Under the pieces are notes generated by a model, which saw nothing but the letters and a program-made list of their open reading frames with translations, did not search any database and was not told the DNA's origin. From Acidobacteriaceae bacterium (GTDB taxonomy: Bacteria; Acidobacteriota; Terriglobia; Terriglobales; Acidobacteriaceae), in contig JASIAO010000234.1 of NCBI GenBank assembly GCA_030041955.1, positions 1 through 34,593 of the forward strand: 34,593 nt of DNA, given 5' to 3'. Of this stretch, positions 8,338-33,503 are shown one piece after another. The position numbers and the translations under genes were made by a program. Within the stretch, counting starts at the first letter, position 1. Every line of letters begins with the position of its first letter.

Positions 8338-8344
8338 GTCGAGG

Positions 8345-8369: not shown

Positions 8370-8387
8370 AAATTATTGATTATAAAG

Positions 8388-8462: not shown

Positions 8463-8532
8463 GCCGGATGGAACCAGCGCTGTTGGGGAGCTGTCTGACT
8501 GCGGCAGGCACTGCCGATCGCGTCGCAACAAC

Positions 8533-8570
8533 CTTCGTCAGTATAACAAAGCAGTCCTGGCGGATCGGAT
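8533..8570 (-). promoter_or_regulatory. Possible tRNA-Phe promoter
   Basis: On the minus strand TATACT (8545-8540), preceded by TTTGT, resembles a -10 box about 70 nt before the mature tRNA 5' end. No good -35 hexamer stands at the right distance. Confidence 0.3.
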
Positions 8571-8649
8571 GCCCCTTTATCACTATCCCGCGCCCACCCG
8601 CGATACACTTGTGCCACTGAATTCAGCTCCTCCCCAGGAATCGAGGCTG

Positions 8650-10209: not shown

Positions 10210-10231
10210 GACAATTCCTGAACGATTGCCG

Positions 10232-11506
10232 ATGAGAATCGTCTTCTCGACCTATGGCACGTTTGGGGATGTCAATCCCCTCGTCGCTTTGTGCCTCGAG
10301 CTCAAGCGCCGCGGCCACCAGCCCGTGCTCGCCATCCCGGAAATGTTTCGCCCCAAGGTCGAGCCGCTCGGCATAGGCTTTACGCGCGTGCGTCCCGATC
10401 AGGACCCCACCGACACGCGCCTCATCGCGATGATCTACGACATCAAGCACGGCACCGAAACCGGCCTCCGCGAATTCCTCTTCCCGTCGCTCCGCGAGAG
10501 CTATCAGGATCTCCTCGCCGCGGTTGAAGCCGATGGCGGCGCCGATCTGCTGGTCACCGGCGAGCTCGCTTACGCCGGCCCCATCGTCGCGGAGAAGACC
10601 GGCATTCCCTGGGCTTCCTACGTGCTCGCGCCGTTCTCCTTTTTCTCCGCGTACGATCCGCCCGTGCTCCCGCCCTATCCCACGCTGGCCCGCGTGCAGG
10701 AGTCCTTCCCGCCCCTCGGCCACGTGGTCGCGCGATTCGCGCGCTTCGTCACGCGCAAGTGGCCGGAGCCCGTCTACACGTTGCGCCGCGAGCTCGGGCT
10801 CCCCCCCGGCAAGGATCCCATCTTCGACGCGAAGCACTCCCAGCGCCTGGCCCTCGCGCTCTACTCGCGTGTCATGGGCGAGCCTCAACCGGACTGGCCG
10901 CCCTCCGCGAAGATCACCGGCTTCGCCTTCCACGACGGCGCGGGCGACGAGGGTGAGTTGCCGCCTGAGCTGGCGGCGTTCCTCGAGGCGGGTCCGCTGC
11001 CTCTGGTCTTCACCCTTGGCTCCGCCGCCGTGATGAATGCCGGCGATTTCTACGAGCAGAGCGCCGAGGCCGCGGAGATTCTCGGCCAGCGCGCCGTGCT
11101 CCTCATCGGCGCAGACGACCGCAATCTTCCCAGGCGCAGGCTCCCCGACACCATCTGCGTCACGCGCTATGCGCCTTATTCCAAAATCTTCCCCCGTGCC
11201 TCGGTGCTCATCCATCAGGGCGGCATCGGCACCACCGCGCAGGCCCTGCGCGCCGGCAAGCCCATGCTGGTGATGCCCTATAGTCACGATCAGCCCGACA
11301 ACGCGCGTCGCGTGCGCCGTCTGGGAGTCGCCGAAGTCCTCGGCCGTAACCAGTACAAGGCAAAGCCTGCGTCTCGGCTCATATGGAAACTGCTTTCAGA
11401 TAACACTTATCAGGCGCAGGCCAAAATCGTTGCAGCGAAGATCGTCGCCGACAACGGAGCCGTCGCCGCCTGCGACGCTCTGGAAGCCATGGTCCTCAAA
11501 TGGTAG
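10232..11506 (+). CDS. MGT/UGT-type glycosyltransferase (GT1-like)
   Basis: 424 aa from ATG 10232. The N-terminus MRIVFSTYGTFGDVNPL is the glycine-rich acceptor-domain start of the GT1/GT28-like family. The C-terminal donor-binding signature reads HQGGIGTTAQALRAGKPMLVMP, followed by HDQPDNARRVRRLG. These enzymes use a nucleotide sugar to glycosylate lipids, sterols or secondary metabolites in the cytoplasm. No clear Shine-Dalgarno precedes the start; it lies 22 bp after the adenosine deaminase-like gene, so translational coupling or a shared transcript is plausible. It ends 4 bp from the convergent comEC stop with no terminator between. The acceptor is unknown. Confidence 0.88.
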   Translation: MRIVFSTYGTFGDVNPLVALCLELKRRGHQPVLAIPEMFRPKVEPLGIGFTRVRPDQDPTDTRLIAMIYDIKHGTETGLREFLFPSLRESYQDLLAAVEADGGADLLVTGELAYAGPIVAEKTGIPWASYVLAPFSFFSAYDPPVLPPYPTLARVQESFPPLGHVVARFARFVTRKWPEPVYTLRRELGLPPGKDPIFDAKHSQRLALALYSRVMGEPQPDWPPSAKITGFAFHDGAGDEGELPPELAAFLEAGPLPLVFTLGSAAVMNAGDFYEQSAEAAEILGQRAVLLIGADDRNLPRRRLPDTICVTRYAPYSKIFPRASVLIHQGGIGTTAQALRAGKPMLVMPYSHDQPDNARRVRRLGVAEVLGRNQYKAKPASRLIWKLLSDNTYQAQAKIVAAKIVADNGAVAACDALEAMVLKW

Positions 11507-11510
11507 CTCG

Positions 11511-17993: not shown

Positions 17994-18028
17994 GACCGAT
18001 CGCTGCTCACTAATCGCTGATCTCTCAA
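17994..18028. repeat. Heptanucleotide array, nadC-birA gap
   Basis: Five consecutive 7-nt units, two of them CGCTGCT (18001) and CGCTGAT (18015), with CACTAAT (18008) between. The last unit covers the nadC stop codon (18025-18027). The same unit type recurs in other gaps of the window. Confidence 0.5.
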
Positions 18029-18909
18029 TACAGCTCCGCGGTAATGCGCATCGAGAGGTCCACCGCCGGCGCGGAGTGCGTCAGCGCCCCCACCGAAATG
18101 TAATCCGGCCCGGCCAACGCGTACTTGCGCACATTCTCGAGCGTGATCCCGCCCGACGCCTCCACGGGAATATCGAAGCCCCGCTCCTGCACCAGCGCGA
18201 CCGCCTTCTTCACCTCGCCCGGCGTCATATTGTCCAGCAGCAGCGACTCGGCGCCGTGGTCCAGAGCCAGGTTCAGCTCGTCCACGTTCCGCACTTCGAT
18301 GTCGATCGTCTGCCCTGGCTTGCGCCGCTCCCGCGCGCTCTCCAGCACCTTCACGATCCCGCCGCCCAGTGAGATGTGGTTGTTCTTGATCAGAATTCCA
18401 TCCGACAGATCGAGCCGGTGATTCTCCCCGCCGCCGCAGCGTACCGCGTACTTGTCCAGGATGCGCAGCCCCGGGACGGTCTTCCGCGTATCCAGAATCT
18501 TCGCCCCCGTCTCTTCCACCTCGTCCACGTAGCGCCGCGTCATCGTTGCAATGCCGCTCATCCGCTGCAGCAGGTTCAGGATCACCCGCTCGCACGCCAG
18601 AATCACCCGGGCATTGTGGCGGATCACCGCAATCGCCTGCCCCTTGCGCAGCCGTACTCCGTCGAAAATCTCCGGATGGCTCACCACTTCGAACCGTCCG
18701 CTGTTTCGCGGGTCGAGCCGCGAAAAAATCTCCAGGAAACGCGGAATGCACCCCACGCCCGCGAGCACGCAGTCCTCTTTGGCGATGATGGTCGCCGCGG
18801 CGCGCAGCGTGGGATCGACGGTCAGCGCGGTCGTTACGTCGCTGGTAGCTCGGTCCTCCACCAGCGCCTGCTCCAGAATGGCCTCAATTCGGCGGCTCTT
18901 CCATTCCAT
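18025..18909 (-). CDS. nadC: Quinolinate phosphoribosyltransferase (nicotinate-nucleotide pyrophosphorylase, carboxylating)
   Basis: 294 aa, normal length. It converts quinolinate and PRPP to nicotinate mononucleotide in de novo NAD synthesis. Seen: EDRATSDVTT near the N-terminus, VILACERVILNLLQRMSGIAT, the DTRKTVPGLRILDKYAVRCGGGENHR block that binds quinolinate, LIKNNHI, and the barrel ends SLLLDNMTP and EASGGI. The ATG (18909) is only 6 bp after the valS stop, so it is translated from the valS transcript. No nadA or nadB is nearby. Confidence 0.95.
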   Translation of the reverse strand: MEWKSRRIEAILEQALVEDRATSDVTTALTVDPTLRAAATIIAKEDCVLAGVGCIPRFLEIFSRLDPRNSGRFEVVSHPEIFDGVRLRKGQAIAVIRHNARVILACERVILNLLQRMSGIATMTRRYVDEVEETGAKILDTRKTVPGLRILDKYAVRCGGGENHRLDLSDGILIKNNHISLGGGIVKVLESARERRKPGQTIDIEVRNVDELNLALDHGAESLLLDNMTPGEVKKAVALVQERGFDIPVEASGGITLENVRKYALAGPDYISVGALTHSAPAVDLSMRITAELY

Positions 18910-18915
18910 GGCGAT

Positions 18916-21750
<2,835 letters not shown>

Positions 21751-21768
21751 GCAAATTTCCATCATAAT

Positions 21769-21780
21769 GCGCGCGCGCGC
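21769..21780. repeat. (GC)6 dinucleotide tract in the valS upstream gap
   Basis: Twelve alternating G and C lie between the upstream terminator and the valS start, just upstream of a TATGAT on the minus strand. Alternating purine-pyrimidine DNA can adopt a left-handed form under supercoiling. A regulatory role is speculation. Confidence 0.35.
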
Positions 21781-21789
21781 CGCCAATGG

Positions 21790-21811
21790 AAAAGGCCGCG
21801 CTGACGCGGCC
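21790..21811 (-). terminator. Intrinsic terminator after the bamD-like gene
   Basis: On the minus strand a perfect 7-bp GGCCGCG/CGCGGCC stem with a 4-nt loop is followed by TTTT and CC. It is the clearest rho-independent terminator in the window. It separates the bamD-like gene from valS, so valS needs its own promoter. Confidence 0.8.
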
Positions 21812-21847
21812 TCTCCCTGCTCACGCTTTACGTCTGCTGCCGGTCTT

Positions 21848-21868
21848 CGAGCTACCAGCAACCAGCTT
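21848..21868. repeat. Short heptamer run, bamD-like 3' end
   Basis: Three 7-nt units, CGAGCTA (21848), CCAGCAA (21855) and CCAGCTT (21862), lie just after the stop of the bamD-like gene. The motif differs from the main heptamer family, so this is a weaker case. Confidence 0.25.
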
Positions 21869-21872
21869 GTTC

Positions 21873-23480
21873 TTAGAACGGGTTCAGCTTATCCACGCCC
21901 TTCTTCTTCTTGTGCTTGCTCGACGACTCGTCCTTCTTGTCGTAGGGCACCTTTTTGTTCTTGGTGGTCGGCTTCCCGCTCGCATTGGCGCCGGTCTGCA
22001 CCTGCGCCCCTGCCGGACCGCTCGGCACCTGGTTGATCTGCTCCGGCGCCGCAGCCGGCTTATCCACCGGCGGCAGCGGCTGGTTGTTCGTCGGCCCCAC
22101 CGGGGCAACCAGAGGCTGTGCGGCTGGCTGCGCCGCGGCGCCTGGCGGCGTATTCGCCGTCGCGCCCGCTCCGCTGTCCTCCGTCACCCCCGCGCCCGTA
22201 TCCCCGTTCTGCACCTGCACGCTCACGCTGTTGCCCGGCGCGCTGTTCGCCGTTGGCACGTCACCGAGGGTCAGCGTCTGCACTGCGCCTTCGCCTTCGG
22301 CCGCGGGCGTTGCCTGCGGTGCGGCTGCGGAAGCCTGTACCGGAGCCGGCGCGCCCGGACCCACTTCCGGAATCGGCTTGCCCGCCATCGCGTCCACCAG
22401 CGCCGTCTTCGCCTCTTCATTCAGATCCTTCGGAATCACCGGCGGCGGACTCACCAGCGAGGGATCGCCCACGCGCGCGGCCCTGATCGTATCCGGCCCG
22501 CGTCCCAGCAGCGAGAGCGCCCGCGAGCCCAGCTTCACGTTCACGCGGCTGTCCTCCTCCGCCTGGCTCTCGGCCAGCTCCGCAGCCGTCGGATCCGGAA
22601 CCGGACGCCCCATCGCGATCAGCCGGTCCTTCGCGTCTTCCACATGCGGCGCCAGCGGATACCGCGTGCACACCCGGTCCCATGCGGCTGCGGCGCGGTC
22701 GTTGTAATACTTCTCCAGCTCGGCTTTGGCCTTGGGTGGAATCCTGAAGCGCGACGAGACATACGCCGCCTCCTGCGCGTACGCGTCGCCGATCGAAATC
22801 AGCGTGTCGTCCGCCTTGCTGAAGAGCGGATAGTCATCAGCCACCGTCTGCAGCCGCGCAATCGAAGCCGCCCAGTTGTCGCGCGAGAAGTAATATTCTC
22901 CAATCTCGTACTGCCGCTGCGCCAGCACTTCCTGCACCTCGCGCAGTTTCTGCTTGGCCCTGGGAATCAGCGGCGAATCCGGGAACTGCTCCAGCATGGT
23001 GCGGTACTCACGCTCCGCGTTCACCGCGTTCTGCGGATCGCGGTCCGGCTTCTCCATCTGCTGGAAGTAAATGTCCCCCACTTTCATCTGCGCTTCGGCC
23101 GCTTCCGGACTGTTGGGGAAAAACGTGATGAAGTCCTTGTATTCCGATTCCGCCTGCGCCAGCGCTGCCGATCCACCTTCCTTGAACCACGTGTCGCCCA
23201 CCGCCAGCTTCGCGCGCATCGCGTACTCTGAGTCCGAATACGTGTTCAGCAGCGTCTGCAGATCCAGCCGGGCCACGTCGTACTTGCCCTTCTTCATGGC
23301 CAGCATGGCCTTGTCGTACAGGATCTTGTCCGGCTGCTCGGAGTTCACCTTCTGCAGCGCCGTCTCGCTCGTGTTGTAGTCCTTCGGGTTCTTCTTGTGC
23401 TTCCTGGCGAACGCGCAGGGTGAGAACGCGATGGCCGCGCCCAAAGTAACCGCCGAAATCCGAATAACCAGCCGATTCAT
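21873..23480 (-). CDS. BamD/YfiO-like TPR protein with long C-terminal tail
   Basis: 535 aa. A signal peptide ([23 protein letters not shown]) precedes TPR-like helices over residues about 45-250. These have the BamD pattern [42 protein letters not shown] and later [12 protein letters not shown] and [11 protein letters not shown]. BamD is the lipoprotein that, with BamA, inserts outer-membrane beta-barrels. The only Cys near the cleavage site (FSPC) is not a canonical lipobox, so lipid anchoring is uncertain. Residues about 330-510 are an Ala/Pro/Gln-rich low-complexity tail, followed by a Lys-rich end ([10 protein letters not shown]), making it about twice the usual 240-280 aa. A terminator follows the gene. 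Confidence 0.75.
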
Positions 23481-23559
23481 AACACCTCAGAAGTCGCGGA
23501 CGCTTCACGGTCTTCCAGGGCTCGGCGGTCCGCGACGACCCTGCCCCAGGTTTTCAATC

Positions 23560-24234
23560 TTACGCGGCCACCTGCGCCGCACGCAGCGCCGCTTCCAGCA
23601 GCCGTCGCGCATCGCGCTCTGCGTGCCCCTCGCCGAAAACCGCATTCCCGGCCACCAGCAGCTCGGCTCCCGCTTCGACGACCGCGCCGACGGTGTCGTG
23701 AGCTACCCCGCCGTCCACCTCAATCCTAAACCGCAGTCCCAGTTCCTGCCGAAGTTCTTTCAGTCGTCGTATCTTGTTCAGCGAATAGGGGATAAACCGC
23801 TGCCCGCCAAACCCAGGATTCACGCTCATCACGAGCACATGGTGCACCATCCCCAGCACCGGAATCAGCAGTTCCACCGCCGTCGCCGGATTGATTACCA
23901 CCGCCGGCTCCATCCCGTGCCGCTCAATCAGCTCCAGCGTGCGATGCAGGTGCCGGCAGGCTTCGTAGTGGACGCTCACCCAGCTCGCCCCCGCCTCGGC
24001 AAACGCCGGGATATATTCGTCCGGATTTTCGATCATCAGATGGCAGTCCAGCGGCAGCTTCGTGTGCTTCCGCAGCGACTGCACAATCGGCGGTCCCACC
24101 GTGATATTCGGGACAAAATGCCCGTCCATCACGTCCACGTGGATCACACTTCCGCCTCCGCGCTCCGCCGCCGATACTTCATCGGCCAGCCGCGCAAAAT
24201 CCGCGGAGAGTATGGATGGAACCAGCTCAACCAA
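23560..24234 (-). CDS. rpe: Ribulose-phosphate 3-epimerase
   Basis: 224 aa, normal length, starting at TTG 24234 with GGAAA 6 nt upstream; the family start VELVPSILSADF allows no later start. It interconverts ribulose-5-phosphate and xylulose-5-phosphate in the pentose phosphate pathway. TIM-barrel motifs with metal and catalytic residues: HVDVMDGHFVPNITVGP, DCHLMIENPD, VMSVNPGFGGQRF, EVDGGV, and VAGNAVFGEG for phosphate binding. It is divergent from tyrS, and the shared gap carries two heptamer runs. The bamD-like gene follows 79 bp downstream. Confidence 0.96.
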   Translation of the reverse strand: MVELVPSILSADFARLADEVSAAERGGGSVIHVDVMDGHFVPNITVGPPIVQSLRKHTKLPLDCHLMIENPDEYIPAFAEAGASWVSVHYEACRHLHRTLELIERHGMEPAVVINPATAVELLIPVLGMVHHVLVMSVNPGFGGQRFIPYSLNKIRRLKELRQELGLRFRIEVDGGVAHDTVGAVVEAGAELLVAGNAVFGEGHAERDARRLLEAALRAAQVAA

Positions 24235-24252
24235 GATATTTCCAGTGTATCA

Positions 24253-24273
24253 AGCAGTCAGCGGTCAGCGATC
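24253..24273. repeat. Heptanucleotide array upstream of rpe
   Basis: Three tandem units, AGCAGTC (24253), AGCGGTC (24260) and AGCGATC (24267). On the minus strand they read as CGCTGAC-type units, the same family as the other arrays. They lie 18 bp upstream of the rpe TTG start. Confidence 0.5.
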
Positions 24274-24372
24274 AGGACATGCGGATATCCAGCGGCACCG
24301 CGGGTCTTTGAGCCTTCGCCGCCCATCGCTGGCTGCTGATCGCGCAGAACGGCCCGCGCGGGGAAGTCCACT

Positions 24373-24400
24373 CGCTGAACGCCAAACGCTGATCACTCAC
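24373..24400. repeat. Heptanucleotide array upstream of tyrS
   Basis: Four 7-nt units: CGCTGAA (24373), CGCCAAA (24380), CGCTGAT (24387) and a diverged CACTCAC (24394). They end 13 bp before a TATACT that could be the tyrS -10 box. Confidence 0.5.
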
Positions 24401-24413
24401 CTCTAACCGCTTT

Positions 24414-24419
24414 TATACT
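24414..24419 (+). promoter_or_regulatory. Candidate -10 box of tyrS
   Basis: TATACT lies 11 bp before ATG 24431, which would give a leader of only a few bases. No Shine-Dalgarno precedes the ATG, consistent with a nearly leaderless message. No good -35 hexamer is seen. Confidence 0.35.
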
Positions 24420-24430
24420 GATTCCTGCCC

Positions 24431-25684
24431 ATGTCCAGCTTCCTTCCCGTCGATGAGCAGCTCGACCTGCTCCAGAAAGGCGCGGCCGAGATCATCCGCG
24501 TCGACGACCTGCGCGCCCGCCTCGAAAAATCGCGCCAGACCGGCGTCCCCCTTCGCGTCAAAGCCGGATTCGATCCCACCGCTCCCGACCTCCACCTCGG
24601 CCACACCGTCCTGATGCGCAAGCTCAAGCACTTCCAGGACCTCGGCCACCAGGTCATCTTCCTCGTCGGCGACTACACCACGCTCATCGGCGACCCCACC
24701 GGCCGCAACGCAACGCGCAAGCCGCTGACACGAGAGGAAATCGACGAGAACGCGAAGACCTACACCGACCAGGTCTTCCGCATCCTCGACCGCGAGAAAA
24801 CCGAAGTCCGCTTCAACTCCGAGTGGCTGGGCAAGCTCTCTTTCGAGGACATCATCCGCCTGGCCGCCAAATTCACCGTCTCGCAGATGCTGGAGCGCGC
24901 CGAATTCCACGCGCGTTTCCAGAATGAGCAGCCCATCTCCCTCCACGAGCTCCTCTACCCGCTCGCCCAGGGATACGACTCGGTCGCTCTGCGCTGCGAC
25001 GTGGAGCTGGGCGGCACCGATCAGAAATTCAACCTCATCGCCGGCCGCGAGCTGCAGCGCGACTTCGGCCAGCCTCCGCAGATCGTCCTCATGACCCCCA
25101 TCATCGAGGGGCTCGACGGCGTGCAGAAAATGTCGAAGTCCCTGAACAACGCCATCGGCATCCACGAGCCGCCCCAGGAGATGTACGGCAAGCTCATGTC
25201 GATCTCCGACGAGCTCATGCCTCGCTACTGGACCCTCCTCACCGATCTCCGCCAGAGCGAAATCGACAAGATGAACGCGGACATCGCCTCCGGCGCGCTC
25301 CATCCCATGCAGGCCAAAAAGAACCTCGCCCGCACCATCGTCGCCGGCTTTCACGGCCAGGAGGCTGCGCAACAGGCTGATGACAACTGGGCGCGGCAAT
25401 TTCAGCAAAAGTCCGACGACCTGGAGGGTCTCGACGAAGTCCGCATCGCGTTCGCCGAGCTCACCAACCCCTCCTCAGCGCCCGGCCTGCACGTTCGCGT
25501 GCCCAGGCTGCTCGTCCGCCTCGGCCTCGCCGCATCCGGTGCCGAAGCCAGCCGCAAGCTCGCCGAGAGCGCCGTCCGCCTCGACGGCCAAACCATCTCC
25601 GCTCCGACGGTTGCCCTCACCGCACTGCCCGCCCGCGTCACTGTCCGCGTCGGCAAACGCGCCAAAATCGCCATAATCGAATAA
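24431..25684 (+). CDS. tyrS: Tyrosine--tRNA ligase
   Basis: 417 aa. It charges tRNA-Tyr with tyrosine. Class I signatures: [20 protein letters not shown] (HIGH equivalent HLGH) and KMSKS in [13 protein letters not shown], which places it in the TyrZ-like subgroup having the KMSKS form rather than [18 protein letters not shown] and the [19 protein letters not shown] block are the amino-acid site. A C-terminal S4 RNA-binding domain is present ([28 protein letters not shown]). It is divergent from rpe and monocistronic. A REP element begins 12 bp after its stop. Confidence 0.97.
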
Positions 25685-25695
25685 GGCTGGTCACC

Positions 25696-25721
25696 GGGTA
25701 GGCGCGACATTCATGTCGCGC
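25696..25721 (+). repeat. REP unit upstream of RAYT
   Basis: GTAG (25698-25701) stands at the foot of a perfect 9-bp inverted repeat, GCGCGACAT (25702-25710) and ATGTCGCGC (25713-25721). A GTAG-type tetranucleotide at the hairpin foot is the hallmark of REPs recognised by RAYT proteins. It is inverted relative to the two downstream copies. Confidence 0.7.
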
Positions 25722-25744
25722 AATTCAGGCATCTGTGACGAGGT

Positions 25745-25758
25745 GCGGCTTGAGCCGC
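25745..25758. repeat. GCGGCT-TG-AGCCGC palindrome, left side of RAYT
   Basis: A perfect 6-bp inverted repeat with a 2-nt loop, 24 bp after the upstream REP. A near-identical palindrome lies at 26255-26268 on the other side, so it is probably a second component of the REP element. Confidence 0.55.
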
Positions 25759-25830
25759 TGAGGCCCATTCCTTTCCTGCCGGAACTTCCGTCATCTGGCG
25801 CGAGGTGCCGAGCGGTCTTACGCTTTCCAC

Positions 25831-26262
25831 GTGCGGCCCGCCCTTCAAACCTACTTCCTGACGATTGTCGCTGCGGAACGCAGGAGGTTGCTGCAATCGG
25901 ATCGTTCGGCGGCTCTGCTGCGGCAAATCCTGTTTCACTACCGTGACGAGCGCCGCTACGCCCTGCACCCTTTTGTCATCATGCCTGACCACCTCCACCT
26001 GCTCCTCACGCCTGCCGCCGATCAATCCCTGGAACGCTGCGTGCAATGCATCAAGGGCGGCTTCTCGCATGCATTCCGAAGTCAGACTGGCTGGAAAGCG
26101 GAGCTCTGGCAAAGAAGCTTCTATGAACATCGCATCCGCGATGCTGAAGACTACCGCCAACACTGCTTCTACATTGCCGGAAACCCGAAGACTCCGGACT
26201 ACCCCTGGCTGGAGATGGATGGACCGGCAATCGACGGAATGCCGGCCGGCCTCGGCGGCTGA
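25831..26262 (+). CDS. REP-associated tyrosine transposase (RAYT), Y1 HUH family
   Basis: 143 aa from GTG 25831, the only usual start codon downstream of an in-frame stop at 25759. The Y1 transposase fold is clear: TYFLTIVAAERRRLLQSDR, then the HUH metal motif HLHLLL in VIMPDHLHLLLTPA. A helix with CIKGGFSHAFR and the ending LWQRSFYEHRIRDAEDYRQHCFYIAGNP, carrying the catalytic Tyr of EDYRQH, follow. RAYTs nick at REP hairpins and are usually single-copy and not self-moving like insertion sequences. The stop codon lies inside a palindrome (26255-26268). It appears intact. Confidence 0.88.
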   Translation: MRPALQTYFLTIVAAERRRLLQSDRSAALLRQILFHYRDERRYALHPFVIMPDHLHLLLTPAADQSLERCVQCIKGGFSHAFRSQTGWKAELWQRSFYEHRIRDAEDYRQHCFYIAGNPKTPDYPWLEMDGPAIDGMPAGLGG

Positions 26263-26268
26263 AGCCGC
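26255..26268. repeat. GCGGCT-GA-AGCCGC palindrome overlapping the RAYT stop
   Basis: A perfect 6-bp inverted repeat with a 2-nt loop whose middle contains the TGA stop of the RAYT gene. It is the partner of the palindrome at 25745-25758. Confidence 0.55.
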
Positions 26269-26292
26269 GGGATTTGCGACTGCCCCTTGTCC

Positions 26293-26314
26293 GCGGCATG
26301 AATGCCGCTCCTAC
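26293..26314 (-). repeat. REP unit 1 downstream of RAYT
   Basis: A perfect 7-bp inverted repeat, GCGGCAT/ATGCCGC, with a 2-nt loop is followed by CTAC (GTAG on the minus strand) at 26311-26314. It is opposite in orientation to the upstream REP. Confidence 0.7.
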
Positions 26315-26316
26315 CC

Positions 26317-26340
26317 GCGCAGCATGGATGCCGCGCCTAC
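26317..26340 (-). repeat. REP unit 2 downstream of RAYT
   Basis: A 9-bp inverted repeat with one mismatch (GCGCAGCAT/ATGCCGCGC) is followed by CTAC at 26337-26340. It is in tandem with REP unit 1, as in BIME-type clusters. Confidence 0.65.
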
Positions 26341-26370
26341 CTGAAAAATGCAACAATCCCTCTGGCCGCA

Positions 26371-26398
26371 CTCTGAACCCTAACCCCTGTCCTCAACG
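26371..26398. repeat. Heptanucleotide array at the ruvA 3' end
   Basis: Four units, CTCTGAA (26371), CCCTAAC (26378), CCCTGTC (26385) and CTCAACG (26392). The array runs into the ruvA stop codon (26393-26395). Confidence 0.4.
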
Positions 26399-26983
26399 AA
26401 TCACCTTCAGCGCGCCCCGGAACAACTCGTCGAAGTTCGCTCCCGCCGTCTTGTCCCGCTCCACTGCCGTCTCAATCGCCTTTTGCGCCGCCGGCCGCGA
26501 GTACCCCAGATTCACCAGCGCCGACAGCACATCTTCCGCAGCCGGAACCGCGGCCAGCGCCGGCTCCGGCGCCACGGCAAAGTCTTCGAGCTTCTCCTTT
26601 AGCTCCACGACGAGACGCTCGGCCAGCTTCTTGCCCACTCCAGGAATCCGCGTCAGCGTCGCGTGATCCTGCGCGCGAATCGCCGCCACCGTCCGCTCCG
26701 GATTCAGCCCGCTCAGAATCGTCACCGCCAGCTTCGGTCCCACGCCGGACACGGTGATCAGCCGCTCGAACAGCCGCTTCTCATCGCGCTCCAGAAACCC
26801 GTAAAGCGCCAGCGTGTCCTCGCGTACCTGCGTATAAATGTAAAGCGCGACGTCGCTGCCCTCGCGCGGCAGCGCCGTAAACGTCGGCACGCTGATGGTG
26901 ACGTCGTAGCCTACCCCGCCGGCCTCCACAATCGCCTGCCCCGGACTCTTCGCGAACAGCTTTCCCCGCAAATGCGCAATCAT
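26393..26983 (-). CDS. ruvA: Holliday junction branch migration protein RuvA
   Basis: 196 aa from ATG 26983, where the family start MIAHLRGKL is found; an earlier ATG at 27001 lies within repeats. Domain I is an OB fold (GGVGYDVTISVPT). Domain II carries the helix-hairpin-helix pairs LITVSGVGPKLAVTILSGL and LTRIPGVGKKLAERLVVELKEKL that hold DNA. Domain III (SALVNLGYSRPAAQKAIETA) contacts RuvB. RuvA forms tetramers on four-way junctions. No ruvB or ruvC is nearby. The ribosome binding site AGGGAT is part of a heptamer array. Confidence 0.95.
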   Translation of the reverse strand: MIAHLRGKLFAKSPGQAIVEAGGVGYDVTISVPTFTALPREGSDVALYIYTQVREDTLALYGFLERDEKRLFERLITVSGVGPKLAVTILSGLNPERTVAAIRAQDHATLTRIPGVGKKLAERLVVELKEKLEDFAVAPEPALAAVPAAEDVLSALVNLGYSRPAAQKAIETAVERDKTAGANFDELFRGALKVIR

Positions 26984-26985
26984 GC

Positions 26986-27020
26986 GATCCCTAATCCCCA
27001 ATCCCTAATCCCTGGTCCTG
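26986..27020. repeat. Heptanucleotide array between the S9 peptidase stop and the ruvA start
   Basis: Five 7-nt units, read on the minus strand as AGGGATT-like repeats. They include the S9 peptidase stop codon (27005-27007) and end 2 bp before the ruvA ATG. Each AGGGAT resembles a Shine-Dalgarno sequence; the one nearest the ATG is correctly spaced. Confidence 0.6.
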
Positions 27021-29194
27021 GTCCACTCATCCACCCAGTCATTCACCGTCTTGTACCAGAACTGCGAATTCTGCGGCTTTAGCACCCAATGCCCCTCATC
27101 GGGAAAATACAGCATCTTCGATGGCACCTTCATCCGCTGCAGCGTGTCGAAGATCTGATACCCCTCCGACACATCCAGCCGGTAGTCGAGCTGCGAGTGC
27201 ACCACCAGGGTCGGCGTTTTAAAGTGCGTCTCCGCCAGCATCGGTGACCACCGCCGATACAGCGGCCGATTCGTCCACGGTGTCCCTTTGAACTCCCACT
27301 CGTTGAACCACAACTCGTCCGTCGTCCCGTACGCCGACTCGGTGTTGAACATCCCGTCGTGCGTCACGATGCACTTGAACCGGTCCGTGTGTCCCAGAAT
27401 CCAGTCCGCCATGTACCCGCCGTAGCTCGCGCCCAGCGCGCACTCCCGCGTCTTGTCGATAAACGGATAATGCAACTCGGCGTAATCCAGCCCGCGCATC
27501 AGGTCGATGTACGGCCGCCCGCCCCAGTCGCCATTCACGCGATCGACAAAGGCCTGCCCATACCCGGTCGACCCGCCCGGATTGATCATGACAACCACAT
27601 AGCTGTTGGCTGCGAACAGCTCCGGATTCCAGCGATACGACCAGCTGTCGCCCCACTCGCCCTCCGGCCCGCCATGAATCAGAAATTTCACCGGATATTT
27701 CTTCGTCGCATCGAACCCCGGCGGCTTGATGATGAATCCCTCCACCCGCACTCCGCCAATCGAAGGAAACCAGAACGACTCCATCTTCGGCAGATCGAGC
27801 TGGGCGAGGACGGCGTCGTTCAGATGCGTGAGTTGCGTCACTGCCCGCACGCTGACCGGGCCGAACCCCATCCTCAGCTCTGGCATGCCGGCCACCTTCA
27901 TTCCGCTGCCCTCAGCCGGCGCCGCTGTCTCTTCTGAAATCTCGACCACCTCGCCGGGCGATCTCACCGTCATGCGATTCGCAACGATCGCCTTGCCATC
28001 CGCAACAATATGCAGGTCCCCGTAGGTTCCCTCGCGCGTCAGCATGCTCATCTTGCCGTCGAGAGTTGTTTCGTAAATCGGCTCCTCGCCCTTATCTCCG
28101 CTTGCGAAATAGATAGTCTGCGAATCCGGCGCCCACGCCTCCTCATCCACCCACCGGTCGAAATTCGGCAGAACTTCCCTGATCTGCTTCGTCGCGCGGT
28201 CGTAAACGACCAACCGGAAGCGGTCGCTCTCATACCCGGCCCGCTCCTGCATCCGCCATGCAATCCATTTCCCATCCGGCGAGTAGCGCGGCGTAAAATT
28301 CCCGCCCGCGCTCGTCGAAATCTTCACCGGCTGTGCATTTGGCTCATCCAGGTTCAACGCAAAGATCGACACATTCGTGCTCAGCGCCGGGTCATCGACT
28401 TTCTTTTCCTCGAACGCGATCTCCTTTCCGTCCGGCGAAAACGCGTATCCATCCGGTTCGCCCAGCGAGAACGGCGGAACGTCGTGCTCGTCCCCCGGAT
28501 TCAGGTCGCGAAAGCTCCCATCCGCCACGGAAACCAGAAACAGATGGCTCCGCTTGTCATCCGTAAACGCGTTCCAGTGCCGATAGAGCAGGTGGGTGAA
28601 GATCTTCGCCTTCACCTTGCTCTCGGCCTGCGCCTCATCCTTGCGCTTATCGCACGCGTCCTCATCCGAGCCGGACGGCGCGATTCCCGGTCCCGGACCA
28701 GCGCTGCATTCGGAATAAACCTGCGACAAAAACGCAATGTGCTGCCCATCCGGCGACCACATCGCTCCATCAGTCTCCGTGCTGATGTGCGTCAGCTCGT
28801 GTGGCTCACCAATCGTGCCCGCCTGGCCGTTGAAATCGGCCAGCCAGATCTGCTGCCCGCCATCGCGCCCGCTCTCAAACAGAATCTGCTTCCCATCCGG
28901 CGAAAATCGACCTCGGCTCTCGCCCGCATTCCACGCCAGCAGCGGTTTCTCCGCTCCTCCATTCACCGGCACGATCCACAGATGTGGCGTGCGGGTGTTC
29001 TGTTCGAGAGTCACGTCCGTCGCCGAAAACAGCACCCACTTCCCATCCGGCGAGACGTCGATGTCTCCCAGCCGACGCATCTTCATCATGTCGTCGAAGG
29101 TCATCGGCCGCTGCGTTACCGCCGTCGGCACCGTCTGCGCCCCGGCCAGCGACGCTGCCATCAGCGCCGCCATCGCCCACACTTTTCCCCTCAT
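27005..29194 (-). CDS. Secreted S9 family peptidase (DPP5-like prolyl oligopeptidase)
   Basis: 729 aa from ATG 29194, with AAGGGG about 9 nt upstream. The signal peptide is MRGKVWAMAALMAASLAGA. Residues about 35-440 form a WD40-like propeller with repeated SPDGK motifs. The C-terminal alpha/beta hydrolase domain carries Ser590 (GASYGGYM), Asp670 (HSQLDYRL) and His702 (DEGHWV), a complete triad. The LGHTDRFKCIVTHDGMFNTESAYG stretch is typical of the DPP5-type dipeptidyl peptidases, which release dipeptides from oligopeptides in the periplasm. It is followed by ruvA across a heptamer array; no functional link is evident. Confidence 0.93.
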   Translation of the reverse strand: MRGKVWAMAALMAASLAGAQTVPTAVTQRPMTFDDMMKMRRLGDIDVSPDGKWVLFSATDVTLEQNTRTPHLWIVPVNGGAEKPLLAWNAGESRGRFSPDGKQILFESGRDGGQQIWLADFNGQAGTIGEPHELTHISTETDGAMWSPDGQHIAFLSQVYSECSAGPGPGIAPSGSDEDACDKRKDEAQAESKVKAKIFTHLLYRHWNAFTDDKRSHLFLVSVADGSFRDLNPGDEHDVPPFSLGEPDGYAFSPDGKEIAFEEKKVDDPALSTNVSIFALNLDEPNAQPVKISTSAGGNFTPRYSPDGKWIAWRMQERAGYESDRFRLVVYDRATKQIREVLPNFDRWVDEEAWAPDSQTIYFASGDKGEEPIYETTLDGKMSMLTREGTYGDLHIVADGKAIVANRMTVRSPGEVVEISEETAAPAEGSGMKVAGMPELRMGFGPVSVRAVTQLTHLNDAVLAQLDLPKMESFWFPSIGGVRVEGFIIKPPGFDATKKYPVKFLIHGGPEGEWGDSWSYRWNPELFAANSYVVVMINPGGSTGYGQAFVDRVNGDWGGRPYIDLMRGLDYAELHYPFIDKTRECALGASYGGYMADWILGHTDRFKCIVTHDGMFNTESAYGTTDELWFNEWEFKGTPWTNRPLYRRWSPMLAETHFKTPTLVVHSQLDYRLDVSEGYQIFDTLQRMKVPSKMLYFPDEGHWVLKPQNSQFWYKTVNDWVDEWTRTRD

Positions 29195-29234
29195 GCGTCT
29201 GGCCCCTTCTTCACTTCTGCTCTGATAGCGGTTC

Positions 29235-31376
29235 TTATGCTACATCGCGCGCGCTGGCTCCGCCCGCAGCCGTCGTGCGTGGCCGTGCTCCTTCGGCCGC
29301 CGCTTCATCCACCGGCAGATCAATCGTCACCTCGGCTCCGTGCGGCTCCACATTCGCCGCCGAAATCTCACCGCCGTGCTCGCGCACGATGGAGTAGCAC
29401 AGGCTCAGTCCCAGTCCGAACCCCTCGCCCGGGTTCTGCGTGGTGAAAAACGGATCGAAGGCGCGCCCCGGATCGCTGAATCCGGGCCCGTTGTCGGCAA
29501 ACCTGATCCGTACCCCCTCCCGCAGCCCCGTAACGTCCACGCTCAGCCGCCGCTCCGCGTCTCGCGGCATCTCTTCGAGCGCCGTGACAGCGTTCTTGAC
29601 GATCTGCAGAAAAACCTGGCGGATCTGATCCTCGTTTGCCATCACCGGCGGCAGAATCTCCGGAATCTTCAGTTGCAGATCGACGCGCGCACGCTCCAGG
29701 TCGTGCCGCGCCAGTTTCTCGATGTCGCGCAGCAGCAGTTCCACTGAGATTGGGCCGCGGCTCTCAGGCGTAATCCTGCGAAAGCGCACCAGGCTCTCGA
29801 TAATCTTCTTCATCCGCCGCGCCTCGCTCAGGATCACCTGGGCGCGATCCCGCACTCCGCCGCTCTCGCTTTCCGACAACAGCTCGGCAAAGCCAGTCAC
29901 CGCTGTCAGCGGATTATTCAGCTCGTGAGCCACTCCCCCTGCCAATTGTCCCAGCCCTGCCAGCCGTTCAGAGTGCATCAGCCGCCGCAGCAGCCCCACC
30001 TGCTCCCTCGCCGCCGCGATGCGAGCTACCAGCAGTTCCAGCGGCAGAACGTCATCGGTGCGCAGCGCCAGCCCCGGCTGGCGCAAGCCGCCCAGGAGCA
30101 GCGCCCCCTGCCAGCCGCCGTCGCGCACGCGGATACCAATGATCCATGAATCGCGATGATTGAGTCCCTTCGGAAGCGCCTCCGGCGAAGCAGACGCGCG
30201 CGACCCGGCACTCCCTTTATCCTCCGCCGCCATCACCGGAGTCAGATCCACCCGCATCAGGTGGCCGATCTCCCGCGCCATATAGCGGGCGCTGGTCAGC
30301 TCCGCCAGCTTCTCCTCCGTCACGCGCGCGCCCGCAACGTTCAGCGCGCCGGCTGCCTCGGCCGGAATGCCTGCGTGGCCGACCAGCCGGAACGTTCCTC
30401 CCGCATTGCGCACGAAAACAGCCGCCTGCGCAAACCGGCTGGCCTCCACGATGGTCTCGCACACCTGGCCGTACTGCCGCTCGCTCTGATCCAGCGGCAT
30501 CACTCCCAGATACAGCTCGTTGTACTTCTCCATCTCCCGCCGCGCCCGGCGGTCGCGCGCGAGCGCCGCCTGGTTCGACGCGATTTCGTCCTCCAGCACC
30601 AGAACGATCATGCCCAGCGCAGTCAGCACCTTCACCAGGTCGATCGCGCGCAGAAACTCCGCGGGTGGAGGTGCGATCGCCGGGATCGCGTGCAGAATGC
30701 CCGGTACGGACCACACCGCCAGTCCTCCCACCGTAAACAGCACGCCTGTGGTAGCCCGGCGGAACGCCGATGCGAACAGCATCGCCGTCATCAGCAGAAT
30801 GCCGCTGTGCACCAGCTCCAGCGCCTCCGTATACTCCGCGCGCAACGTCAGCCAGGCGCATCCCGCGCCCACCACCAGCACCAGCGGCAGGCTCAGCCAC
30901 TCCGGCACCAGATTCCGGTGCAGGCTCCAGCGCGCGCCCACCAGCAGCGTCGCCGCCAGGCAGAGCAACAATACGGCGCGGACCGCGGTGCCCGGCGCGC
31001 TGTAGACCGAGCTCAACGTGGCATAGAGCACCAGCGGCGCGCCGAACGCGGTCACGTACAGAATTTTTGGCTTTTTCGTGAAATATTGCGCCGCCAGCGA
31101 GCCCAGGAACATCAGTGCGCCAAGTTCCATGCAGTCCCGCGCCACCGTTTGGCCGCCTGCCGTGCCGCCATAGCGGGAAACCTGCGCCGCCAGTTGCACC
31201 ACCAGCAGGAACCATCCCAGCAGCCACAGCAGGTGCCGGTGCCGCGCGTTCGGCAGTTCGCCCAGCCGCTCCGCGCTGGCCGGATGCGACCGCCACTCAA
31301 GCCACAACGTTCCAAACACCGCTATCAGAGCGGCCAGTATCGCGAGCGTGGGAATATCGAAGGTTTGCAGATTCAT
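29235..31376 (-). CDS. Membrane-anchored sensor histidine kinase with GAF-like domain
   Basis: 713 aa. Residues 10-262 hold about eight hydrophobic segments, an integral-membrane sensor. A GAF-like region follows (about 300-455: QVCETIVEASRFAQAAVFVRN ... IIGIRVRDGGWQGALLLGG). The H-box GGVAHELNNPLTAVTGFAELL has phosphoacceptor His484. The ATPase domain has the N-box (QIVKNAVTALEEMP), G1 box (FADNGPGF) and G2 box (GFGLGLSLCYSIVREHGG). The ELNNPLT form is the NtrB-like HisKA type. No response regulator is in the window, so it is an orphan kinase here. The signal is unknown. It lies 40 bp upstream of the S9 peptidase gene on the same strand. Confidence 0.92.
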   Translation of the reverse strand: MNLQTFDIPTLAILAALIAVFGTLWLEWRSHPASAERLGELPNARHRHLLWLLGWFLLVVQLAAQVSRYGGTAGGQTVARDCMELGALMFLGSLAAQYFTKKPKILYVTAFGAPLVLYATLSSVYSAPGTAVRAVLLLCLAATLLVGARWSLHRNLVPEWLSLPLVLVVGAGCAWLTLRAEYTEALELVHSGILLMTAMLFASAFRRATTGVLFTVGGLAVWSVPGILHAIPAIAPPPAEFLRAIDLVKVLTALGMIVLVLEDEIASNQAALARDRRARREMEKYNELYLGVMPLDQSERQYGQVCETIVEASRFAQAAVFVRNAGGTFRLVGHAGIPAEAAGALNVAGARVTEEKLAELTSARYMAREIGHLMRVDLTPVMAAEDKGSAGSRASASPEALPKGLNHRDSWIIGIRVRDGGWQGALLLGGLRQPGLALRTDDVLPLELLVARIAAAREQVGLLRRLMHSERLAGLGQLAGGVAHELNNPLTAVTGFAELLSESESGGVRDRAQVILSEARRMKKIIESLVRFRRITPESRGPISVELLLRDIEKLARHDLERARVDLQLKIPEILPPVMANEDQIRQVFLQIVKNAVTALEEMPRDAERRLSVDVTGLREGVRIRFADNGPGFSDPGRAFDPFFTTQNPGEGFGLGLSLCYSIVREHGGEISAANVEPHGAEVTIDLPVDEAAAEGARPRTTAAGGASARDVA

Positions 31377-31713
31377 TTTCCGCAGCGGCTGACCCGATCG
31401 ATCCTCGGCGCGATGCGTGATTCAGTCGTCGTCCGGTCCACCGGGACAGTCCGCCCTCTACCCCGGCTTCGCTTCACGGGGTGGTCGTCCACGGGCCTCA
31501 TCCTACGAGCTGGAAGCCGCCGGTCCCTCTACACCCCAGCAAAGTCTAACTGTTTTCTAAGGCAGGGGTAAGCATCTTCTCAGCCTCCGTATTCACAAAG
31601 CTACCTATGCCGCCCGGCACCGCTCCCCGCGCCGCTGCGAATCTTCCCCTCCAACGGTGATCCCATCCACCTTCCTTTGCGTCTATTCTGAAGCAAGACC
31701 AGGAGCCGTAACC
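31377..31713. other. 337-bp divergent intergenic region, no gene seen
   Basis: This gap separates the histidine kinase (minus) from the LolA-like gene (plus). It should contain both promoters, but no convincing -35/-10 pair stands out. Short open frames here have no family motifs. AGGAG at 31701-31705 is the ribosome binding site of the plus-strand gene. Confidence 0.5.
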
Positions 31714-32682
31714 GTGTCGTCTGCTTCTCCCCATCCCCTGCATCGTTCGCGCCTCGCCGCTCTGCTGGCCGCGCTGCTGCTCCTGCCTTTCGCGGCCGCA
31801 CCGGCGCTCCACGCCCAGGCATCCCGCGATTCCATGCCGCTCGATTCCGGTTTCGGCCCGCTCGACCCCACCCCGCCCTCCATCCCCGTCGATCAGATCA
31901 TCAAGGAGTTTACCGCCAAGGAAACCCTCTTCAACCAGGCCCTCAACGACTACACCTGGACCCGCACCGTCAAAGTTCAGGTGCTCGACGACGACAACCA
32001 GCCCACCGGCCAGGTGTACTACCAGGTCGTCAACATTTACTACAACCCCCAGGGCGAGCGTAAAGAGCGCGTCGTCGACGCTCCCCAGAGCACCATCAAA
32101 GACGTGATGATGAGCGAAAGCGACTTCTCCGACATCGAGGAGCGCCTCTTCTTCGTCCTCACCGCCGAAGCCGCCAGCCAGTACGACATCACCTACCTCG
32201 GCAAGCAGCGCATCGATCAGATCGATACCTGGGTCTTCGACGTCAAGCCCAAGGTCATCGAGAAAAAGCACCGCTACTTCCAGGGCCGCATCTGGGTCGA
32301 CCAGAAGCAGCACCAGATTGTCGTCACCGACGGCAAAAACGTCCCCGACGACCTGCGCCCCGGCCACGAAGACCTCACGCTGCCCTTCATCACCTGGCGC
32401 CAGCTGGTCGACGGTCAGTACTGGTTCCCCGTGTACACCCACGGCGCTGCCATGCTGCATTTCTCCGCCGGGAAGGGCTACCTCAGCCAGAACGTCAACA
32501 TGGACGAGATGGTCGATTACACCAACTATCACCGTTTCCGCACCAGCATCCGCATCATCTACAACGGGCAGGACATCACCAACAACTCTCACCCCACCAA
32601 TCAGCCGTCCGCGCAGCCCGGATCACAACCAGCACAGCAACCGCAGCCCCAATCAGGATCGCAGCCGAACCAACCGCACTAA
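31714..32682 (+). CDS. Secreted LolA-like (outer membrane lipoprotein-sorting-type) protein
   Basis: 322 aa from GTG 31714, chosen because AGGAG lies 8 nt upstream and the signal peptide (RLAALLAALLLLPFAAAPALHA) then sits near the N-terminus; an ATG at 31657 would add 19 residues. The body has beta-rich repeats like YTWTRTVKVQVLDD, VYYQVVNIYYNPQGERKERVV, TWVFDVKPKVIEKKHRYFQGRIWVDQKQHQIVVTDGK. These recall the LolA/LolB-like fold found in MucB/RseB and DUF4292-like proteins. The last 40 residues are Gln/Pro-rich (NQPSAQPGSQPAQQPQPQS). A role in the periplasm or outer membrane is likely; the exact function is unknown. The DUF1080 gene follows 47 bp downstream. Confidence 0.65.
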   Translation: MSSASPHPLHRSRLAALLAALLLLPFAAAPALHAQASRDSMPLDSGFGPLDPTPPSIPVDQIIKEFTAKETLFNQALNDYTWTRTVKVQVLDDDNQPTGQVYYQVVNIYYNPQGERKERVVDAPQSTIKDVMMSESDFSDIEERLFFVLTAEAASQYDITYLGKQRIDQIDTWVFDVKPKVIEKKHRYFQGRIWVDQKQHQIVVTDGKNVPDDLRPGHEDLTLPFITWRQLVDGQYWFPVYTHGAAMLHFSAGKGYLSQNVNMDEMVDYTNYHRFRTSIRIIYNGQDITNNSHPTNQPSAQPGSQPAQQPQPQSGSQPNQPH

Positions 32683-32732
32683 TCACTGGGCGCTGTACGC
32701 TGTACGCTGTCCCCTGTACGCTGTACGCTGTG
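32677..32732. repeat. Heptanucleotide array (8 units) at the DUF1080 gene start
   Basis: Eight contiguous 7-nt units: two diverged ones (32677 and 32684), then six of the CGCTGTA type from 32691. The array starts within the end of the LolA-like gene (its stop is 32680-32682) and its last unit contains the GTG start codon of the next gene. It is the most regular array in the window. Confidence 0.8.
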
Positions 32733-33503
32733 AAGAACCCCATCCTCTGCCTCGCTCTTGCCGCCCTTGCGCTGCCCGTCTTCGCCCAGCAGTCCTCCGG
32801 AATGAAGCCCGAAGACACCGAGGTGTGGAAACCCGTTCCGCCCGTCGTCACTCCCGGCGCAACCTGCGCCGCGCCGCCCTCGGACGCCATCGTCCTCTTC
32901 AATGGCAAAGATGAAGACGCGTGGGTTTCCGCTCAGGATCACACCCCGGCCCGCTGGATCGTCCACGACGGCATCCTCACCGTGAACAAATCCGCCGGCA
33001 ACATTGAAACCCGCCAGCGCTTCGAGGATTACCAGCTCCACATCGAATACCGCATTCCCAAAGACGTCACCGGCTCCGGCCAGGCGCGCGGCAACAGCGG
33101 CGTCTTTCTCGCCTCCACAGGCCCCGGTGACGATGGTTACGAACTCCAGGTCCTCGACGGCTACAACAACCCGACCTACGTCAACGGCATGGCCGGCAGC
33201 ATCTACAAGCAGTCGCCGCCGCTCGTGAACCCCTCGCGCCCACCGGGCGAGTGGCAGTCCTACGACGTGATCTGGACCGCCCCGCGCTTCCGACCCGATG
33301 GCTCCCTCGCGTCGCCCGCGTATGTCACCGTCTTCTTCAACGGCGTCCTCGTGCAGGATCACTTCCAGCTCACCGGCCAGACCCTCTACATCGGCAAGCC
33401 GTTCTACAAGGCGTACGACCGCGCCCCCATCAAGCTCCAGGCCCACGGCGACCCCAGCCCACCCATCAGCTTCCGCAACATCTGGGTCCGCGAACTGCCC
33501 TGA
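32730..33503 (+). CDS. Secreted DUF1080 (3-keto-disaccharide hydrolase-type) protein
   Basis: 257 aa starting at GTG 32730; the leader KNPILCLALAALALPVFAQQ is a signal peptide that requires this start. The DUF1080 concanavalin-like jelly roll is clear: IVLFNGKDEDAW, WIVHDGILTVNKSAGNIETRQRFEDYQLHIEYRIP, RGNSGVFLA, YELQVLDGYNNPTYVNGMAGSIYKQSPPLVNPSRPPGEWQSYDVIW and ISFRNIWVREL. Members hydrolyse 3-keto-glycosides or bind carbohydrate. No Shine-Dalgarno precedes the GTG; the place is filled by heptamer repeats. It follows the LolA-like gene and may share its transcript. Confidence 0.9.
   Translation: MKNPILCLALAALALPVFAQQSSGMKPEDTEVWKPVPPVVTPGATCAAPPSDAIVLFNGKDEDAWVSAQDHTPARWIVHDGILTVNKSAGNIETRQRFEDYQLHIEYRIPKDVTGSGQARGNSGVFLASTGPGDDGYELQVLDGYNNPTYVNGMAGSIYKQSPPLVNPSRPPGEWQSYDVIWTAPRFRPDGSLASPAYVTVFFNGVLVQDHFQLTGQTLYIGKPFYKAYDRAPIKLQAHGDPSPPISFRNIWVRELP

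What the first reader, a model, noticed from the sequence alone, without database searches (positions are those of the whole stretch)
17994..32732. A family of heptanucleotide tandem arrays in at least six intergenic gaps
Runs of 3-8 contiguous 7-nt units occur at 17994-18028, 24253-24273, 24373-24400, 26371-26398, 26986-27020 and 32677-32732. The units fit a loose consensus C-N-C-T-R-A-T; CGCTGAT, CACTAAT, CCCTAAT and CGCTGTA all appear. Some sit next to each other in the same order, such as CACTAAT followed by a C-x-C-T-G unit in two separate gaps. Every array lies in a gap, and most overlap a stop codon or abut a start. None was seen in the accessory left 8.4 kb. They resemble in style the short tandem heptanucleotide repeats of cyanobacteria, but in an acidobacterial-type genome and with different units. 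The shared period and location suggest one process making or keeping them.
Basis: seen in the sequence. Interest (0 to 1): 0.75.

Follow-up and report, generated by a model that had tools for sequence, protein, structure and literature searches.

The report
Heptamer arrays pointing at gene edges
Short seven-letter DNA repeats sit in gaps between genes in this soil bacterium and, with other letters, in its relatives; they lie hard against gene ends in one fixed direction and sometimes form matching hairpin arms, which known explanations do not cover.

Summary
In a 423-kb sample of this acidobacterial genome, period 7 is the one short period clearly enriched in gaps (22 runs versus 0.4 shuffled; genes 6 versus 3.7). 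Arrays found without assuming a motif share a unit, close to C-N-C-T-R-N-N. Such arrays are known (TAACTGA repeats; GGGNATC repeats of Xanthomonas and Nostoc), so the class is not new.

What I add: (1) A strict polarity. The 3' end of the C-strand abuts a gene. At stops in this genome: 26 of 27 within 20 nt on that side versus 2 of 20 on the other. It holds with other units in other acidobacteria (94 of 121) and, more weakly, in loci of other phyla (61 of 95). (2) Paired arrays in a gap face outwards (36 versus 1 inward), making a hairpin. In one other genus the two arms match although the unit changes between species (22 of 24 versus 19% swapped). (3) At most 9 of 60 own arrays fit a G-quadruplex pattern, and several array-rich genomes show no RVT_1 reverse transcriptase.

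Most likely: slippage-made arrays reaching the gene edge by directional spread or selection, with inverted copying between arms. The cause of the polarity remains open.

The parts
17994..18028 (+). Array 1: 3 consensus units (18001-18021: CGCTGCT CACTAAT CGCTGAT) with a degenerate unit on each side; spans the 14-nt gap and touches the stop of the NadC-like gene (18025-18909, minus)
24253..24275 (-). Array 2: about 3 units, C-strand on minus, 18 nt from the called start of the Rpe gene (23560-24234, minus); left arm of an inverted pair
24373..24407 (+). Array 3: 5 units, 3 of them full consensus, 23 nt before the start of the class Ib tRNA synthetase gene (24431-25684, plus); right arm of the pair (partner test p 0.04, marginal)
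26371..26398 (+). Array 4: 3 consensus units (26371-26391) ending 1 nt from the stop of RuvA (26393-26983, minus); no partner arm (p 1.0)
26986..27020 (+). Array 5: (CCCTAAT)-type units over the 21-nt gap, supplying the TAG stop of the S9 peptidase gene (27005-29173, minus)
32677..32732 (+). Array 6: 8 units filling the whole 47-nt gap; the TAA stop of the left gene (31714-32682) and the called GTG start of the right gene (32730-33503) lie inside it

Best explanation
These are members of a widespread class of polar heptamer arrays at gene edges. Shown: period 7, units favoured by each genome, residence in gaps, the C-strand's 3' end against a start or stop codon, different arrays or none in the same gap of related species, and, in the complete form (common in two other acidobacteria, a minority here), two outward-facing arms of the same unit that make the gap a hairpin with a unique loop. 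Inferred: arrays are born and lengthened by replication slippage. They advance in the direction of the C-strand's 3' end (or lose the spacer on that side) until coding sequence stops them, which puts them against gene ends and lets them supply stop codons. A second arm arises and is kept matched by inverted copying (quasi-palindrome template switching, recalled) or by selection for the hairpin. Because the same DNA polarity is seen at starts and stops, where the transcript carries opposite strands, the cause is more likely at the DNA level than one RNA motif read by a protein.
For: Period-7 excess in gaps and a motif found without assuming it (6.56 bits versus control mean 4.16, maximum 4.94 of 20). 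Polarity: own genome 42 of 51 arrays (unbiased subset 23 of 26; 20 of 21 without the window); stops 26/27 versus 2/20, starts 10/24 versus 3/31. Other acidobacterial genomes with other units: 94/121, stops 45/71 versus 4/77, starts 18/50 versus 1/44. Loci of other phyla: 61/95; within 20 nt 47 versus 23; stops 34/58 versus 9/38. Neighbouring arrays: outward pairs 36, inward 1; 16 and 2 in named loci. Arms match within one mismatch: G101 13/18 (chance 21%), G388 8/8 (chance 24%), own genome 2/2; genus of G388, 22/24 within two mismatches versus 19% swapped, 0 of 5000 permutations, and 18/20 without G388 and sister copies. Loops unrelated (17 of 26 pairs of G101 and G388 compared). A 21-nt difference in the left arm of two relatives; 7-nt indels are reported for Cyanothece TAACTGA sets (PMC4679880, section read). 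In 18 of 27 stop-facing own arrays the stop lies inside or within 3 nt.
Against: No growth gradient inside arrays (35 versus 41 halves). In the own genome 31 of 46 testable arrays have no significant partner arm. Arm match is not clear in G089 (3 of 8) or the named loci (6 of 16, chance 26%). In one search the two relatives differ by 29 nt in all, not a multiple of 7. Plain slippage does not explain why unrelated gaps of one genome share a unit, nor why some unit positions (C, C, R) change least within arrays (frame fitted on the same arrays). No closely related strains were at hand to watch an array being born.
Confidence: 0.4

Rival explanations
1. Functional transcript-boundary element: arrays and hairpins act in the RNA or on RNA polymerase leaving a gene (stabiliser, RNase site, insulator), and selection places them at the stop or start and keeps the arms complementary.
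For: Tight spacing to genes (median 5 nt on the C-strand 3' side), arm covariation while the sequence turns over, presence inside a ribosomal-protein gene block.
Against: Presence is very patchy among congeners (2 hits in G003 versus 305 in G006) and among orthologous gaps; single arms dominate in the own genome; folding energies of the orthologous gaps are only mildly low; no sign that arrays replace intrinsic terminators (2 of 27 stops with array, 31 of 213 without, 21 of 240 shuffled).
Confidence: 0.27
2. Passive slippage of chance seeds in unconstrained DNA, without any special process.
For: Turnover, confinement to gaps; a link between 7 nt and polymerase slippage has been suggested (discussion of PMC4692102).
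Against: Chance seeds would give all units and both orientations; observed are a shared unit and polarity.
Confidence: 0.13
3. G-quadruplex elements, as proposed for GGGNATC repeats.
For: Same intergenic location and same polarity in xanthomonads and Nostoc (PMC4692102, passages read).
Against: Only 9 of 60 own arrays contain even a two-G quadruplex pattern, 6 of 60 a three-G pattern, yet the polarity is the same.
Confidence: 0.03
4. Template-directed repeat addition by a telomerase-like reverse transcriptase (compare DRT10) at DNA ends.
For: The G-strand runs 5' to 3' away from the gene, the polarity of a telomere (recalled); few favoured units per genome; a bacterial enzyme of this kind is reported (PMC12632851, passages read).
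Against: No RVT_1 match in array-rich genomes G008, G010, G025, G228, G279 and G388 (14 of 28 genomes searched have one); units vary within arrays; no growth gradient. RVT_1 may miss distant families.
Confidence: 0.04
5. RNA-binding or translational regulator sites, as proposed for TAACTGA repeats upstream of start codons.
For: Some arrays end 3-6 nt before a called start codon.
Against: Most own arrays near a gene abut stops (26 stops, 10 starts within 20 nt), with the opposite strand in the RNA.
Confidence: 0.06

Closest known systems
GGGAATC / GGGGA(C/T)T heptamer repeats of Xanthomonas and Nostoc (Rehm et al. 2015, PMC4692102)
   Same: Period 7, intergenic, genome-wide, few units, pairs on opposite strands in close proximity (70 cases in Xcc, 75 in Xac), shorter distance to the ORF on the 5' side of the G-rich strand whatever the ORF's direction, overlap with stop codons
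   Different: Units here mostly lack G-runs, so quadruplexes cannot be the common cause; here the rule is tested for several units and arms are shown to covary between species. That paper found only a few pairs in Nostoc
TAACTGA direct repeats of Beggiatoaceae, Cyanobacteria and Bacteroidetes (MacGregor 2015, PMC4679880)
   Same: Intergenic heptamers; the unit in rotation (AACTGAT) fits N-N-C-T-R-A-T; mostly just before start codons in the Maribeggiatoa genome
   Different: Here many units per genome and mostly stop-side; that paper calls direct repeats of related heptamers rare in its genome
Cyanobacterial short tandemly repeated repetitive (STRR) sequences (recalled; no paper read)
   Same: Heptamers in gaps
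   Different: Not compared here
REP/BIME and MITE elements (recalled)
   Same: Intergenic inverted repeats
   Different: Arms here are tandem heptamers that differ between loci, and the loops compared are unrelated

Membership tests
Intergenic bacterial heptamer repeats (general kind) | Period-7 tandem units enriched in gaps over shuffles | tested here: met
   22 versus 0.4 in gaps; genes 6 versus 3.7
Intergenic bacterial heptamer repeats (general kind) | Shared unit across loci of one genome | tested here: met
   Motif without prior, 22 gap arrays, 6.56 versus 4.16 bits
GGGNATC quadruplex repeats (PMC4692102) | G-tract in each unit, quadruplex-forming | tested here: not met
   9 of 60 arrays with a G2 pattern, 6 of 60 with a G3 pattern; by pattern only
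GGGNATC quadruplex repeats (PMC4692102) | G-strand starts near an ORF edge and runs away from it | tested here: met
   42 of 51 own arrays
TAACTGA repeats (PMC4679880) | Unit TAACTGA | tested here: not met
   None of the 22 gap arrays found by period alone has it in any rotation (listing, read by eye)
TAACTGA repeats (PMC4679880) | Mostly just upstream of start codons (Maribeggiatoa) | tested here: not met
   26 stops versus 10 starts within 20 nt
MITE / dispersed mobile element | Conserved body between copies | tested here: not met
   No similarity among 17 loops of G101 and G388; own-genome loops not compared
Telomerase-like templated addition (DRT10) | Reverse transcriptase present in array-rich genomes | tested here: not met
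   No RVT_1 match in G008, G010, G025, G228, G279, G388
Telomerase-like templated addition (DRT10) | ncRNA with A-B-A' template for the unit | not tested
   Not searched

The most novel reading that the evidence does not exclude
Across bacteria a directional process, blind to the unit's letters, lays heptamer arms outward from both edges of genes and keeps the two arms of a gap complementary, so that gaps become rapidly changing hairpins framed by gene ends: a gene-edge maintenance or marking system, or a mutational engine, that I did not find described as such.
Probability: 0.28. Interest if true: 0.85.

Novelty: new variant of a known kind. Interest (0 to 1): 0.6.

Why it matters
Heptamer repeats in bacterial gaps are on record, and the 2015 papers I read leave their function open. 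A polarity rule that holds for several unrelated units, and arms that covary between species, weaken the quadruplex and single-motif explanations and give the question sharp tests: strain comparisons, flipping one array, following arms over generations. If the arrays reach and rewrite stop codons, they also shape gene ends.

Tried and rejected
Unit-order grammar (xxT before xxA): 6 of 12, rejected. Growth gradient along arrays: a first count of 14 versus 48 in named loci was an end artefact of the regular expression; corrected 35 versus 41, none. Arrays as substitutes for intrinsic terminators in the own genome: no support. Conserved loop or mobile element: none among 17 loops. Reverse-transcriptase dependence: not supported. 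Empty-site comparison in Chryseobacterium: of 30 fetched loci, one of them the query's own, six show CCCTAAT arrays by eye; where I read it, the array supplies the stop codon, but divergence was too high to see whether DNA was inserted or replaced. Relatives of G101: its genus has only one genome held, so no comparison. Rho-dependent termination: weighed without a call and not pursued, since cyanobacteria lack Rho (recalled).

Rows dropped before counts: own genome 60 arrays, of which 6 in genes and 3 at contig ends, leaving 51; named loci 138 arrays, 36 at ends and 7 in genes, leaving 95, 151 arrays, 12 in genes, 13 at ends, 5 without C/G skew, leaving 121, the ACCCGTA subclass set aside in the mismatch count, 20 of the 40 relatives of G388 were fetched.

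Full report
Observation. The six stretches are in the sequence. Five of them contain an array of at least three C-N-C-T-R-N-N units on the plus strand; the window shuffled 200 times gave at most two (mean 0.065). The sixth (24253-24275) is of the same kind on the minus strand (motif fit). Simple period-7 autocorrelation alone detects three, so the others are degenerate members recognised by the consensus.

Genome-wide test. The pattern CNCTRNN x3 + CNCTR has 163 hits in the own genome, its reversed control 27; CNCTRAT arrays also satisfy the reversed pattern, so the contrast is conservative. I took contigs 1-20, 200-211, 400-409, 411 and 412 (at most the first 20 kb of each) plus the window as a sample (422,654 bases; the 200s and 400s were chosen as number blocks after a hit list that names C200 and C205 had been seen) and called genes with a codon model of my own. 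Period-7 runs: 22 in 269 gaps (19 outside the window) against 0.4 in shuffled gaps (maximum 2 in 20 shuffles); 6 in 337 genes against 3.7. Besides 7 and its harmonic 14 (14 runs) no period exceeds 2 runs in gaps. Counting CNCTR arrays in the same sample: at least 3 units 28, shuffled 0.3, sequence read backwards 8; at least 4 units 17, 0 and 2. A motif fit with no prior on the 22 arrays gave [AT]NC[CGA][CG]T[GA], 6.56 bits against a control mean of 4.16 and maximum of 4.94 in 20 controls. Five of the 22 form a subclass ACCCGTA/AACCGTR. With ACCCGTA-type arrays set aside, differences between neighbouring units fall unevenly over the seven positions (p 7e-7; least at C, C and R, T less clear); the frame was fitted on the same arrays, so this is somewhat flattering.

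Distribution. In the own genus (12 genomes searched) the count runs from 2 (G003, 100% complete) to 305 (G006), with controls 0 and 31. In 396 genomes of the phylum 130 match; two genomes of one family have 1587 and 1234 hits (controls 101 and 50), while some have hits only to the reversed control, such as G388 with 0 and 176, which carries other heptamers.

Polarity. For 51 own-genome arrays with genes on both sides (60 arrays, 28 from the sample and 32 from contigs fetched because they held hits, minus 9 dropped) the 3' end of the C-strand is nearer its gene in 42 (p 3e-6; sample subset 23 of 26, and 20 of 21 without the window). Within 20 nt: 36 on that side, 5 on the other. Split by gene end: stops 26/27 versus 2/20 (p 7e-10), starts 10/24 versus 3/31 (p 0.009). 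In four other acidobacterial genomes plus G009 of the own genus, arrays found by period alone and oriented by C over G, with units such as CCCTGAA, CCTCAGT, CCAAAAT and CGCAAAT, give 94 of 121 (p 7e-10); stops 45/71 versus 4/77, starts 18/50 versus 1/44 (on the loci, where 33 of 38 first showed it, and more). By genome: G101 43/53, G388 25/33, G089 18/25 (p 0.04), G009 6/8 and G279 2/2, the last two not significant alone. Some of those regions were chosen because they held arrays, but blind to orientation. In the 118 named loci, with a crude ORF caller, 61 of 95 (p 0.007), within 20 nt 47 versus 23, stops 34/58 versus 9/38 (p 8e-4). Single CNCTR motifs outside arrays are slightly skewed the same way (381 versus 311). 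Stop positions are exact once the reading frame is right; start positions depend on my gene callers.

Hairpins. Arrays within 200 nt of each other are outward-facing in 36 cases, inward in 1, same-way in 20; in named loci 16, 2 and 20. Outward pairs carry the same unit within one mismatch more often than chance in G101 (13 of 18, chance 21%) and G388 (8 of 8, chance 24%); own genome 2 of 2; not clearly in G089 (3 of 8) or the named loci (6 of 16, chance 26%). Loops share no sequence (17 of the 26 pairs of G101 and G388 compared). In the genus of G388 I followed a block of ribosomal-protein genes (ten identified by Pfam: L3, L4, L2, S19, L22, S3, L16, S17, L14, S14) through 20 of its 40 relatives: the same gap carries different units in different species and none in others. 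In 24 two-array gaps from 13 species the arms match within two mismatches in 22, against 19% for swapped arms and 32% for other species at the same gap; 0 of 5000 permutations reached the observed mean, and the right arm is C-rich in 21 of the 22, equal in 1. Without G388 itself and one of each evident sister copy it is 18 of 20, again 0 of 5000. Folding energies of the orthologous gaps are only mildly low (median z from 0 to -2.2). Two relatives differ by 21 nt, three units, in the left arm, but by 29 nt in all. In the own genome only 10 of 46 testable arrays, in 7 gaps, have a significant partner (p at most 0.02), 5 are marginal, 31 have none, and 5 had no room. The window's pair 24253/24373 is marginal (p 0.04).

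Window arrays in relatives (read by eye). The gap at 26984-27004 has an array in G004 on the same strand with other units; beside the same RuvA gene arrays are seen in G009 and, on the opposite strand, in G008 and G011; none is evident in G003 or G005. The 32683-32729 gap is all array in the window; both neighbours were found together only in G004, with a short remnant at most. Array 1 has a degenerate counterpart in G001.

Mechanism. Because starts and stops show the same DNA polarity, the transcript carries opposite strands at the two, which argues against one RNA motif read by a protein. A quadruplex pattern is present in 9 of 60 arrays at most. Reverse transcriptases of the RVT_1 family are not found in several array-rich genomes, so templated addition is not required at that sensitivity. 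Slippage with coding sequence as a hard stop would explain confinement, abutment and supplied stop codons (in 18 of 27 stop-facing arrays the stop is inside or within 3 nt); inverted template switching, a mutational route known from quasi-palindromes (recalled), or selection would keep arms matched. What makes the process polar is not shown; the growth-gradient test was negative.

Prior work. Rehm et al. (PMC4692102; abstract, first part of results, discussion and passages read) describe the same geometry for G-rich heptamers in three genomes, and opposite-strand pairs in xanthomonads but few in Nostoc. MacGregor (PMC4679880; abstract and one section read) describes TAACTGA arrays. The DRT10 preprint (PMC12632851; passages read) reports a bacterial telomerase-like enzyme. 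In my searches (listings, open-access library only) I saw no report of acidobacterial heptamer arrays, of the polarity for units without G-runs, or of arm covariation between species.

Noticed in passing
window 25888-26262: IS200-like Y1 transposase fragment (Pfam Y1_Tnp, 124 aa), possibly a REP-associated transposase (recalled kind), beside two near-copies of a 26-nt unit with a GCAT/ATGC inverted core (26292-26341).
   Followed up: no
L310 (G101) about 9943-10087: A dispersed repeat of roughly 140 nt with many copies, mostly at about 77-90% identity, in the same genome, separate from the heptamers.
   Followed up: no
L275 (G388) 3624-12104: Heptamer hairpins between ribosomal-protein genes, with units differing from species to species.
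   Followed up: yes
L203 (Chryseobacterium sp. OV279) 838-921: A (CCCTAAT)-type array of 12 units supplies the stop codon of the adjacent gene (read by eye); relatives carry shorter versions or none.
   Followed up: partly
L039, L066, L073, L083: A second own-genome subclass with unit ACCCGTA/AACCGTR (5 of 22 de novo gap arrays).
   Followed up: no
G031 (L268-L270): 155 pattern hits genome-wide but no period-7 run in a 60-kb sample; its arrays may be clustered elsewhere.
   Followed up: no
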